Assembly: GCA_002085155.1 (NCBI GenBank)
Contig: NASX01000031.1
Location: 1-54,341, forward strand
DNA length: 54,341 nucleotides
Direction of reading: 5' to 3'
From: Sorangiineae bacterium NIC37A_2
GTDB lineage: Bacteria; Myxococcota_A; Polyangia; Polyangiales; Polyangiaceae
The notes under the pieces are model-generated. The model saw only the letters and a list, made by a program, of their open reading frames with translations, was not told where the DNA came from and did not search any database. The number at the start of each line of letters is the position of its first letter. The first letter of the stretch is position 1. Positions 48,719 through 50,850 of the stretch are shown piece after piece. The position numbers and the translations under genes are program-made.

Positions 48719-50038
48719 CTACCCGGGCAGACGTAAGGACAAAAGGGAGTCGATCGAGCTCCTCTCGGCGCTCACGGGGAACGTGGGGACGACGCCCATG
48801 TTCGGGGGGAGGTTCTCTGGATGAAGCATGCCGACCTGGATGGTGCGCGTCTGTTCGTCGAGGAGAATGAAGAAATAGCGGTCGCCACGCGGACGACGCC
48901 AAACCGGGCAACCCTCTGTCTCGCCGCCGACCTCGATTTCTGGGCCGATTTCGTAGGCCTTCTTCGCACAGGCGTCGACCACGTCGACATCGAGCGGCAA
49001 AACCGCGTCTCGCTCACAATCCGCTTTGCACACCGCGCCGCCGACGTGCCCTTCCTGATATGAACGGACGCCCGTGCTCGCGAACTCGCGATTCGAGAAC
49101 TCGTTCTCGTCCATGACGACCTCGAACACGTTGATCTCACCACAGCCGTCGCCGACCGTGCCCGTCTTCGAATAGCAGTTGCAGAGCCCGTTCCATTTGC
49201 GCCCGCCGTCCCGCACGAGCTCAGAGGCGACGAACGCCACCCAGGGCCCCGGGTGGCCCGCGCCAGCACCGCTGCAAGGCTCGACCTCGGAGTCCTCGAG
49301 ATCCATCGAGCCGAGAAAAACGACGAGCTTCGAGCCAGAGAATCCTCGATGGAGAATGCCAGGGTCGCTGGGGCAATAATAGTCGCGCCCGTCTCCGCAC
49401 TCGAAGCTCGGCTCCTGCATCACGTAGCCGACGCAGTCGTTTTTCGTCAGATCGCCGGGAAACCTCGGGCTCCCAGCGCCCTGTTGGGTGAACCAAATGT
49501 TTTCGGAGATGCCGCGCTCATCCCAGGCGGTGACTCGATTCCAGGCGTCGCTCGTCTCATCTGCTGGCTGATAGATGGCGAGCTGCTTCACGCGGATCGC
49601 CTTGAATATGAGCGTCATCTCTTCATCGAACGGCGCGAGGCGATCGCTCTCCGTCTCGTAGCGGGAGAGACAACAATGGCCGCCCCAGGTGTCGCTCCCG
49701 TCTTTGTCGTCACAGGCAGGATCTCCCGGCGCTCGATCGAGCCGCCGAGGCCACGACCCCGGCGCGCCCACGTTCGTGAACGTCATCGTGCCGCCACGGG
49801 TGACGCTCGAGGGCTCGAAGGGGAACGCGCCGAGCGCGCCCGAGCGTCCCGAGTTTCCCCCCGACGAACCGCCTCCAGCGTCGCCCGGCCCGGTCGCACC
49901 CGAGCCCGAGGCGTCCCCGCCCGCTCCTGCGGCGTCACCCTCGCCCGAACCGCAGCCGCCGAAGGATAACAAAAAACTTACGAGAGCCGTCACGCCCACG
50001 AGCGAGCGTGAACCCAGACGAGCTCGCGCCCGTTTCAT
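48719..50038 (-). CDS. TOS1-like lipoprotein (DUF2403 + DUF2401)
   Basis: This 439-residue precursor has lipobox FGGC (Cys 29) and a Gly/Ser linker (about 30-65). The rest has the two parts of fungal TOS1/YJL171C wall proteins: an N-terminal glycine-rich-protein region (about 66-150) with TFTNVGAPGSW and LAPFDEEMTLIFKAIRVKQLAIYQP (in pieces), and a C-terminal TOS1-like glycosidase region (about 150-340) with WNRVTAWDE, FTQQGAGSPRF, CGYV-type Cys, and CGEINVFEV. The last contains E301-x-N-x-x-E306, like the E-x-D-x-x-E of GH16-clan beta-glucanases. Yeast TOS1 is a cell-wall protein implicated in beta-1,3-glucan. Its start overlaps the thaumatin-like stop by 4 bp, so they are co-translated. Confidence 0.82.
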   Translation of the reverse strand: MKRARARLGSRSLVGVTALVSFLLSFGGCGSGEGDAAGAGGDASGSGATGPGDAGGGSSGGNSGRSGALGAFPFEPSSVTRGGTMTFTNVGAPGSWPRRLDRAPGDPACDDKDGSDTWGGHCCLSRYETESDRLAPFDEEMTLIFKAIRVKQLAIYQPADETSDAWNRVTAWDERGISENIWFTQQGAGSPRFPGDLTKNDCVGYVMQEPSFECGDGRDYYCPSDPGILHRGFSGSKLVVFLGSMDLEDSEVEPCSGAGAGHPGPWVAFVASELVRDGGRKWNGLCNCYSKTGTVGDGCGEINVFEVVMDENEFSNREFASTGVRSYQEGHVGGAVCKADCERDAVLPLDVDVVDACAKKAYEIGPEIEVGGETEGCPVWRRPRGDRYFFILLDEQTRTIQVGMLHPENLPPNMGVVPTFPVSAERSSIDSLLSLRLPG

Positions 50039-50850
50039 GGCTCTGGCTCCGGGCAGAAGACGATGTCCCAATCCTCACCTGCGCACGCGCGCATCGGACT
50101 CGGATCGTCCCCTCTCTGATCGTCTCCGGACCAGGCGTAGGCCTCGTCGCAGCGCTCGAAATATTGAGCCACCGGGCTCTCTGGATTGTCCCGGTCGGGG
50201 CTGACACAGGCGACGATCTCCCCATTTTTTCCCGCGAAGCGCCCCTCCTCGGGACAACCCTCGAGGAAGTCCATCGCGCAGGTCAGGATCTCACAATCGC
50301 GCAAGGCCGGAACGATCTGCATCGGCAGGTTGTGCGCGTCGACGTGGCTGATGTTGTACCAGTCGAAGTCGTAGAAGTCGGTGTTGAAGGTGAACTCGGC
50401 CAGCGTATGATGCTCGCCACCCGGATCTTCGCCGATGAAGCCCCAATAGCGCTTGGAGTTGATCGGCTCGGCGTCGCTGCCGATGTCGACGCAGGTGACG
50501 GCGCCCGGTGCTAGGTCGCCACCGTCGATGTCGCTGCCACGAAAAGAGACCGACCGGTCGCAGCGGTTCACGAAGGCGAGCGTGGTCTTCCCGTCGCCGT
50601 CGGCGCGGCACTCCGCGGGATTTTCGACGGAGCCCCCGGAGCCACCCGAGGCGCGGCCGCCCGACTCCGTCCCGCCCGATCGACCACCCACACCCGGCGC
50701 GGCTCCTGAGCCTACCCCATCCGCCTCAGGCTCCTCTCCACCCGAGCAACCGAGGCCGAGCGCGACGAGTCCACCGAAGAGCGACAAGAGCAAGGGGCCG
50801 CCCAGCCACCAACGACTTCTCAGCGGTCGCGCTGAACGTCTCGTCCTCAC
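50035..50850 (-). CDS. Thaumatin-like lipoprotein
   Basis: This protein of about 271 residues starts with GTG at 50850. A basic n-region, hydrophobic core and lipobox LGLGC (Cys 35) are followed by a Gly/Ser linker and a 200-residue thaumatin fold: LAFVNRCDRSV, LAPGAVTC, RYWGFIG, TLAEFTF, DWYNISHVDAHNLPM, LTCAMDFLEGCP, AQYFERCDEAYAW and DWDIVFCPE. Ten Cys after the lipobox match small thaumatin-like proteins. Acidic-cleft residues E (in TLAEF) and two D (DWY, VDA) are kept; the classic TGDC loop is missing. An ATG at 50928 overlaps the upstream protease stop (ATGA) and is the alternative start, but its 26 extra codons lack coding bias. Thaumatin-like proteins bind beta-1,3-glucan and act on fungal walls. 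Confidence 0.85.
   Translation of the reverse strand: MRTRRSARPLRSRWWLGGPLLLSLFGGLVALGLGCSGGEEPEADGVGSGAAPGVGGRSGGTESGGRASGGSGGSVENPAECRADGDGKTTLAFVNRCDRSVSFRGSDIDGGDLAPGAVTCVDIGSDAEPINSKRYWGFIGEDPGGEHHTLAEFTFNTDFYDFDWYNISHVDAHNLPMQIVPALRDCEILTCAMDFLEGCPEEGRFAGKNGEIVACVSPDRDNPESPVAQYFERCDEAYAWSGDDQRGDDPSPMRACAGEDWDIVFCPEPEP

What the first reader, a model, noticed from the sequence alone, without database searches (positions are those of the whole stretch)
48719..50850. Coupled thaumatin-like and TOS1-like lipoproteins: a possible surface beta-glucan system
Two lipoproteins with eukaryote-type folds overlap by 4 bp. One matches plant PR-5/thaumatin proteins (NISHVDAHNLPM, TLAEF, ten Cys); the other matches the fungal TOS1/YJL171C pair of domains, including an E-x-N-x-x-E site like GH16-clan glucanases. 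Both families are connected with beta-1,3-glucan of fungal or plant walls. Together, lipid-anchored on a myxobacterium, they could bind and process wall glucan of fungal or oomycete prey. I know of no described bacterial system that joins the two. The basis is motif recognition for the domains and inference for the shared task.
Basis: partly seen in the sequence, partly recalled or inferred. Interest (0 to 1): 0.8.

Follow-up and report, generated by a model that had tools for sequence, protein, structure and literature searches.

The report
Surface beta-glucan lipoprotein pair in myxobacteria
A myxobacterium carries two coupled, probably lipid-anchored proteins that resemble plant thaumatin defence proteins and fungal TOS1 wall proteins, and in relatives such genes often sit beside a beta-1,3-glucanase gene, which suggests a surface kit for gripping and cutting the glucan walls of other organisms.

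Summary
Two predicted lipoprotein genes overlap by 4 bp. The first is thaumatin-family (PF00314, 61.1 bits, cut-off 27.4); the second matches both TOS1 domains in order, below cut-off (20.5 and 20.7 against 27), but 47 and 44 of 48 family members match them too. Its model (pLDDT 86.6) has GH16 beta-1,3-glucanases as its three top, weak matches (Z 6.3, 5.5, 5.3). Linkage is real: of 51 distinct TOS1-like copies, 8 have a thaumatin gene, 24 a GH128 beta-1,3-glucanase gene and 22 a SUN-like lipoprotein gene within 3 kb; 14 have none. All 8 TOS1-like genomes among 377 have a strong GH128, against 9 of 369 others. In four relatives GH128 lies between the two genes; here it is on another contig. So the pair belongs to a wider, GH128-centred lipoprotein module. 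Against simple catalysis, the GH16-type E-x-D-x-x-E site reads E/Q-x-N-x-x-E. Surface location, glucan binding, activity and fungal or oomycete prey are inferred.

The parts
50035..50850 (-). Thaumatin-like lipoprotein gene (GTG start; predicted signal, lipobox, Gly/Ser linker, thaumatin-family domain, 10 Cys)
   Evidence: ORF; PF00314 61.1 bits; PDB thaumatin-like proteins, best E 1.2e-12; PF00314 matches once in the genome
50050..50412 (-). Detected thaumatin domain (profile positions 78-209 of 209)
50746..50748 (-). Lipobox Cys of the thaumatin-like protein (LGLGC, next residue Ser), by eye
   Evidence: sequence; Cys invariant in the 4-sequence alignment
48719..50038 (-). TOS1-like lipoprotein gene (439 aa), overlaps the thaumatin-like gene by 4 bp
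   Evidence: PF10290 + PF10287; AlphaFold2 model of residues 69-439, pLDDT 86.6, pTM 0.90
49952..49954 (-). Lipobox Cys29 of the TOS1-like protein (SFGGC, next residue Gly), by eye
   Evidence: sequence; Cys29 invariant in the 12-sequence alignment
49565..49684 (-). PF10290 (TOS1 N-terminal domain) match, with the strand motif VKQLAIYQP
   Evidence: resembles the C-terminal VDYVRVYQ strand of GH16 (not significant)
49097..49384 (-). PF10287 (TOS1 C-terminal domain) match
49121..49147 (-). Putative active-site motif GCGEINVFE (E301-x-N303-x-x-E306)
   Evidence: aligns with GH16 GEIDIME (marginal); fungal profile prefers E, D, E at the three positions

Best explanation
The two genes encode lipoproteins, predicted to sit on the outer membrane, that act together on beta-1,3-glucan of other organisms. 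Shown: thaumatin-family placement of one protein; distant TOS1 relationship and a confident jelly-roll model of the other; translational overlap; recurrent linkage of TOS1-like genes with GH128 beta-1,3-glucanase, thaumatin-like and SUN-like lipoprotein genes; a GH128 gene with a lipoprotein-like start elsewhere in this genome. Inferred: each protein is lipid-anchored in the outer membrane (the residue after the Cys is Gly or Ser, not Asp; rule recalled from E. [quoted passage not shown] Probable use: breaking glucan walls of prey or wall debris.
For: PF00314 well over its cut-off. PF10290 and PF10287 in 47 and 44 of 48 family members, no other family at E 0.01. Model pLDDT 86.6, pTM 0.90; the best three of the VIA matches are GH16 beta-1,3-glucanases 3wdu, 3dgt and 3azx, and in the first the model's residues 98-371 align with chain residues 1-224, as a circular permutation would give; such a permutation of Tos1 has been published (title in reference lists). 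GH128 within 3 kb of 24 of 51, thaumatin of 8 of 51, SUN-like of 22 of 51 copies. GH128 at E 1e-40 or better in 8 of 8 TOS1-like genomes against 9 of 369 others; any thaumatin match in 7 of 8 against 7 of 369 (Fisher p 2.6e-12 and 1.3e-10, not corrected for relatedness, GH128 threshold set after seeing the list). One linked GH128 (L029) is closest to 6uax (E 9e-161), named as subgroup II GH128 in a paper passage. NEPNF is found in 11 of 12 and TE[FWY] in 11 of 12 GH128 copies compared.
Against: All 48 aligned TOS1-like proteins have Asn where the fungal profile prefers Asp, and 26 of 48 have Gln at the putative nucleophile; the window protein keeps both Glu. The window protein scores below Pfam's TOS1 cut-offs. 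VIA Z under 8 can mean only a common arrangement; a phage tailspike (Z 5.1), a cell surface protein and legume lectins follow closely, and the 3azx alignment spans nearly the whole chain (7-258), which does not speak for a permutation. Foldseek gave nothing at E 0.001. 14 of 51 copies have none of the three partners within 3 kb, including all five Sorangium, all four Myxococcus/Archangium/Hyalangium and all three Fibrobacterota copies (some of these loci end at contig edges). Gene order varies between relatives, so one ancestral operon is not shown. In the window itself GH128 is not adjacent. Localisation, expression and activity were not tested.
Confidence: 0.6

Rival explanations
1. The module serves feeding on free or algal beta-1,3-glucan (laminarin, curdlan, callose debris) rather than attack on living fungal or oomycete prey.
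For: A GH128 enzyme of the same subgroup degrades curdlan (passages). Carriers include Enhygromyxa, which I recall as marine, and several MAGs (record titles). GH16 genes also occur in this genome (4 matches).
Against: No sugar transporter or TonB-type receptor was recognised beside the genes, but flanking genes were mostly read by their first residues and only some were scanned with Pfam, so this is weak.
Confidence: 0.3
2. The TOS1-like protein is a non-catalytic glucan-binding protein (a lectin made from a GH16-like fold), and the thaumatin-like protein is a second binder; only GH128 cuts.
For: Asn in place of Asp in 48 of 48 and Gln in place of the putative nucleophile in 26 of 48; legume lectins of the same jelly-roll class among the structural matches. 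In the thaumatin-like set the Y-D position of the solved relative 2ahn is Asn in 7 of 8.
Against: The window TOS1-like protein keeps both Glu of the motif, and E306 is invariant in all 48, although one of the two search patterns overlapped this motif.
Confidence: 0.4
3. The proteins act on the bacterium's own surface or spore-coat polysaccharide during development.
For: Carriers include fruiting myxobacteria (recalled); fungal TOS1 is discussed among the proteins of the fungus's own wall (passage).
Against: Patchy distribution: long TOS1-like hits in 8 of 377 genomes of the phylum; none in the same-genus genome G309 or in the 19 same-family genomes shown without a match (list truncated); Fibrobacterota MAGs carry it too.
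Confidence: 0.1

Closest known systems
Fungal and oomycete TOS1/YJL171C family (PF10290 + PF10287), predicted to be a circularly permuted beta-1,3-glucanase (Steczkiewicz 2010; only its title and citing passages seen)
   Same: Both domains in order, jelly-roll model with weak GH16 likeness, Cys-rich, both Glu of the motif kept in the window protein
   Different: Bacterial, predicted lipoprotein instead of a fungal wall protein; Asn for Asp in the motif, often Gln for the first Glu; scores of this protein below Pfam cut-offs
Thaumatin-like proteins / PR-5 / GH152 (PF00314)
   Same: Thaumatin domain over cut-off, TLAEF and VDAHNLPM motifs, 10 Cys
   Different: Predicted lipid anchor; 10 Cys rather than the 16 of typical members (as in small TLPs); Asn at the Asp of the Y-D-[VI]-S motif; profile positions 1-77 not detected
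GH128 subgroup II endo-beta-1,3-glucanases (6uax, ScGH128_II)
   Same: A linked GH128 of a relative (L029) is closest to 6uax; the unlinked GH128 of this genome is 61% identical to that copy
   Different: Not encoded beside the pair in the window
GluM, outer-membrane beta-1,6-glucanase of Corallococcus EGB used on fungi (review passages)
   Same: Surface glucanase of a myxobacterium used against fungal walls
   Different: Beta-barrel protein, other linkage; sequence relation was not tested

Membership tests
TOS1/YJL171C (PF10290 + PF10287) | Both domains present, N before C | tested here: met
   47 of 48 and 44 of 48 members at E 0.01; window protein E 6.4e-4 and 3.5e-4
TOS1/YJL171C (PF10290 + PF10287) | Score over Pfam's curated cut-off (27 bits) in the window protein | tested here: not met
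   20.5 and 20.7 bits; one relative (L032:7362-8852) reaches 36.4 bits for PF10290. Hence called TOS1-like, not TOS1
TOS1/YJL171C (PF10290 + PF10287) | E-x-D-x-x-E as preferred by the fungal profile | tested here: not met
   E, N, E in the window; E301Q lowers the score by 2.6 bits, N303D raises it by 2.7, E306Q lowers it by 2.9
GH16 / circularly permuted GH16 | Jelly-roll fold with permuted strand order | tested here: inconclusive
   VIA Z 6.3, 5.5, 5.3 to GH16 glucanases and 4.9 to an engineered permutant; profile comparison 28.4 against a best of 26.3 in 30 shuffles
GH16 / circularly permuted GH16 | Glucanase activity | not testable with these tools
   needs assay
Thaumatin family (PF00314) | Profile match over curated cut-off | tested here: met
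   61.1 bits against 27.4
Thaumatin family (PF00314) | 16 conserved Cys of typical members (10 in small TLPs) | tested here: inconclusive
   10 Cys conserved besides the lipobox; the 16/10 numbers are from PMC3048497 passages
Thaumatin family (PF00314) | REDDD acidic cleft | tested here: inconclusive
   E161 and D180 align with Glu and Asp of the solved protein 2ahn, the Y-D position is Asn175; which residues make up REDDD is recalled; Arg not placed
Bacterial lipoproteins | Signal peptide with lipobox Cys | tested here: inconclusive
   by eye; Cys invariant in alignments; no signal-peptide program at hand

The most novel reading that the evidence does not exclude
Myxobacteria carry a modular, lipid-anchored surface machine that mixes eukaryote-type wall proteins (TOS1-like, thaumatin-like, perhaps SUN-like) with a GH128 glucanase. 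In it a circularly permuted GH16 fold has been turned, by Asp-to-Asn and often Glu-to-Gln changes, from an enzyme into a glucan grip, so that cells hold the wall while GH128 cuts it.
Probability: 0.35. Interest if true: 0.75.

Novelty: new variant of a known kind. Interest (0 to 1): 0.6.

Why it matters
How predatory bacteria hold and open fungal or oomycete walls is known for few enzymes (to my knowledge). A recurrent lipoprotein set with a TOS1-like protein in bacteria gives a tractable way to learn what TOS1, called a putative glucanase in the passages I saw, does. It names candidate genes in named strains of Polyangium, Nannocystis and Enhygromyxa, and shows thaumatin-type genes placed beside glucanase genes in bacteria.

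Tried and rejected
First AlphaFold2 run with 12 sequences was poor (pLDDT 50.5) and was not searched. Foldseek against PDB and BFVD gave no match at E 0.001. A PDB sequence search with the TOS1-like protein gave nothing at E 1, and with its profile only weak hits, the best an immunoglobulin light chain at E 0.27. NCBIfam gave no match for either protein at E 1. Five low-scoring TOS1 hits (G281, G267, G070, G142, G214; E 2.7e-5 to 8.5e-4) were dropped because they cover only stretches of the signal and linker region (within query residues 6-127). Five low thaumatin hits (G115, G339, G309, G289, G102) were dropped for the same reason (within query residues 7-132). Of the 61 TOS1 pieces, four short ones (16-96 aa) and six duplicates were dropped, which leaves the 51 copies; L085 (276 aa) and L078 (280 aa) were kept there and left out of the 49-row tree. 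The 51 are not independent: five loci (L032, L051, L053, L054, L055) give two copies each, and several genera recur.

SUN-like partner: 8 of 12 members match PF03856 at E up to 1, best 0.012, below cut-off in the members whose bits I saw; a weak lead only. An intact three-gene set in the window: rejected, the two genes overlap directly and the genome's strong GH128 is on contig C31. The hhalign test of circular permutation is marginal; its second segment (score 16.0) is within the shuffles. The GH128 threshold of 1e-40 was chosen after seeing the list; at E 0.001, 49 of 377 genomes match: 8 of 8 TOS1-like genomes and 41 of 369 others. Of the thaumatin matches, those of G339 and G368 are weak and that of G295 is a 74-position piece near a contig end. 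One of the two peptide patterns was GCG[EQ][IF]NVF, so motif conservation in those loci is partly built in. The tree program warned that long branches meet; the window and L062 join with 92/84 support. Literature: I saw listings (titles, starts of abstracts), two of them cut (20 of 37, 12 of 37); no listed title describes a bacterial TOS1 or a thaumatin-TOS1-GH128 set. Subscription journals are mostly not held. The 2010 Tos1 paper was not read.

Full report
OBSERVATION. On the minus strand of the window, ORF 50035-50850 (GTG start) and ORF 48719-50038 (ATG start) overlap by four bases. The upstream product has a hydrophobic N-terminus ending in LGLGC-S, a Gly/Ser-rich linker and a domain matching PF00314 at 61.1 bits (cut-off 27.4) and solved thaumatin-like proteins (best E 1.2e-12). 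The downstream product has SFGGC-G, a similar linker, and matches PF10290 and PF10287, the two TOS1/YJL171C domains, in that order at 20.5 and 20.7 bits (cut-offs 27). PF00314 and PF10287 each match once in this 5.0-Mb, 150-contig genome.

FAMILY. A search of 377 genomes of the phylum found long TOS1-like matches in 8 genomes (13 genomes at E 0.001, five of them by linker stretches only) and long thaumatin-like matches in 4 (9 genomes at E 0.001); those 4 are all TOS1-like genomes. A pattern-based scan of one genome per species (84,980 species) returned 41 loci, in Polyangium, Sorangium, Minicystis, Labilithrix, Nannocystis, Enhygromyxa, Archangium, Hyalangium, Myxococcus, other MAGs and three Fibrobacterota MAGs. 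Of 48 aligned members, 47 match PF10290 and 44 match PF10287 at E 0.01, and no other Pfam family appears. So the TOS1 relationship holds at family level even though the window protein is below the curated cut-off.

FOLD. With the 48-sequence alignment AlphaFold2 gives pLDDT 86.6 and pTM 0.90 for residues 69-439. Foldseek finds no PDB match at E 0.001. VIA-align ranks GH16 beta-1,3-glucanases first, second and third (3wdu Z 6.3, rmsd 4.4, 164 aligned; 3dgt Z 5.5, rmsd 3.8, 146; 3azx Z 5.3, rmsd 4.2, 146); a phage tailspike is fourth (5w6p, Z 5.1), an engineered circularly permuted glucanase sixth (1ajo, Z 4.9, rmsd 3.7, 127), and legume lectins follow. Z values this low can be common arrangements, and rows within 1 are tied. 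In the first match model residues 98-371 align with chain residues 1-224 of a 296-residue chain, leaving the model's first 97 residues and the end of the glucanase unmatched, which is what a permutation would give; 3dgt is similar (83-338 to 1-212 of 278), but 3azx is aligned over nearly its whole length (7-258), so this is suggestive only. A profile comparison with 14 GH16 sequences aligned GCGEINVFE with GH16 GEIDIME (score 28.4; best of 30 column shuffles 26.3) and, not significantly, VKQLAIYQP with the GH16 C-terminal VDYVRVYQ (16.0). [quoted passage not shown] I did not read it.

SITE. Changing one residue at a time in a piece of the window protein shows what the fungal PF10287 profile prefers: E at 301 (Q costs 2.6 bits), D at 303 (N to D gains 2.7) and E at 306 (Q costs 2.9). 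Thus the fungal profile favours E-x-D-x-x-E while the bacterial family has E-x-N-x-x-E (22 of 48) or Q-x-N-x-x-E (26 of 48) (one search pattern overlapped the motif). If the motif is the GH16 site, the first Glu would be the nucleophile (GH16 knowledge recalled), so about half the family should be inactive as retaining hydrolases and the window protein may be weak. Whether it binds, cuts or transfers glucan is open.

NEIGHBOURS. Using profiles made here for four families, 51 distinct TOS1-like copies were examined: 37 have at least one partner within 3 kb, namely GH128 (24, of which 3 on the opposite strand), thaumatin-like (8, the window's included) and SUN-like (22); 14 have none. The copies are not independent (five loci give two each), and some loci end at contig edges. 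The thaumatin partners of L056, L057, L060 and L062 pass PF00314 at 67-74 bits. GH128 lies between the two genes in four relatives: read along the genes, thaumatin-GH128-TOS1 in L035/L079 and L060, and TOS1-GH128-thaumatin in L036 and L037. The order is thaumatin-TOS1 in the window, L056 and L062, and TOS1-thaumatin in L057. All 14 Q-I copies have a SUN-like neighbour within 3 kb. The SUN resemblance itself is weak.

GH128. The partner matches PF11790 at 184-209 bits in the three members scanned. The closest solved structure of one copy (L029) is 6uax (E 9e-161), described in a paper's passage as ScGH128_II, subgroup II of GH128. Of 377 genomes, 17 have a GH128 match at E 1e-40 or better: all 8 TOS1-like genomes and 9 of the 369 others (Fisher p 2.6e-12; not corrected for relatedness, threshold set after seeing the list; at E 0.001 it is 8 of 8 and 41 of 369). 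Any thaumatin match occurs in 7 of 8 against 7 of 369, adjacent to the TOS1-like gene in 4. In 7 of the 8 the GH128 is beside a TOS1-like gene; in the window's genome it is a gene with a lipoprotein-like start on another contig, C31 (PF11790 199.3 bits), 42-65% identical to 11 GH128 copies found near TOS1-like genes. One possible history is an old three-gene set from which GH128 left in the window's lineage, but the varying order also allows repeated assembly.

MECHANISM. Shown: the genes, families, overlap and linkage. From family knowledge: GH128 enzymes cut beta-1,3-glucan (passages); thaumatin-like proteins can bind or cut beta-1,3-glucan (passages). Inferred: outer-membrane anchoring, reach through the linkers, cooperation on one polymer, use against walls of fungi, oomycetes or algae. 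A myxobacterial outer-membrane beta-1,6-glucanase used on fungi, GluM, is a precedent of purpose, not of sequence (review passages).

VERDICT. The finding is real and somewhat larger than described: a modular GH128-centred lipoprotein set in which a thaumatin-like protein is an optional member. The parts belong to known families or distant branches of them, and no title listed in my searches describes the combination.

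Noticed in passing
window 50928-51737 (-): A trypsin-like protease ORF (PF00089, 40.9 bits) on the same strand ends about 75 bp upstream of the thaumatin-like start and might be transcribed with the pair.
   Followed up: partly
window 46740-48122 (+): A predicted serpin (PF00079, 117.9 bits) with a lipoprotein-like start, a protease-inhibitor family best known from eukaryotes (recalled), beyond the 3' end of the TOS1-like gene.
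   Followed up: partly
window 33475-38393 (+): Three consecutive lipoprotein-like ORFs of 554, 521 and 554 aa with similar starts; the first has no Pfam match at E 0.01, the other two were not scanned.
   Followed up: no
window 53420-53776 (-): Fragment that looks by eye like an integrase-core transposase near the window's end; L062 has a transposase-like ORF about 100 bp after its TOS1-like gene (by eye).
   Followed up: no
L033 3626-7379, L032 3538-7309, L034 7731-8351: A sigma-factor-like ORF (by eye) and a further GH128 gene lie near the Polyangium tandem TOS1/SUN-like cluster; a sigma-like ORF also lies upstream of the GH128-TOS1 pair of L034.
   Followed up: no
L064, L065, L067, L068, L070, L071, L083: In these Nannocystis, Labilithrix and Myxococcales loci the Q-I type TOS1-like gene is preceded by a conserved lipoprotein-like gene with only a weak SUN (PF03856) match; it may be a family of its own.
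   Followed up: partly
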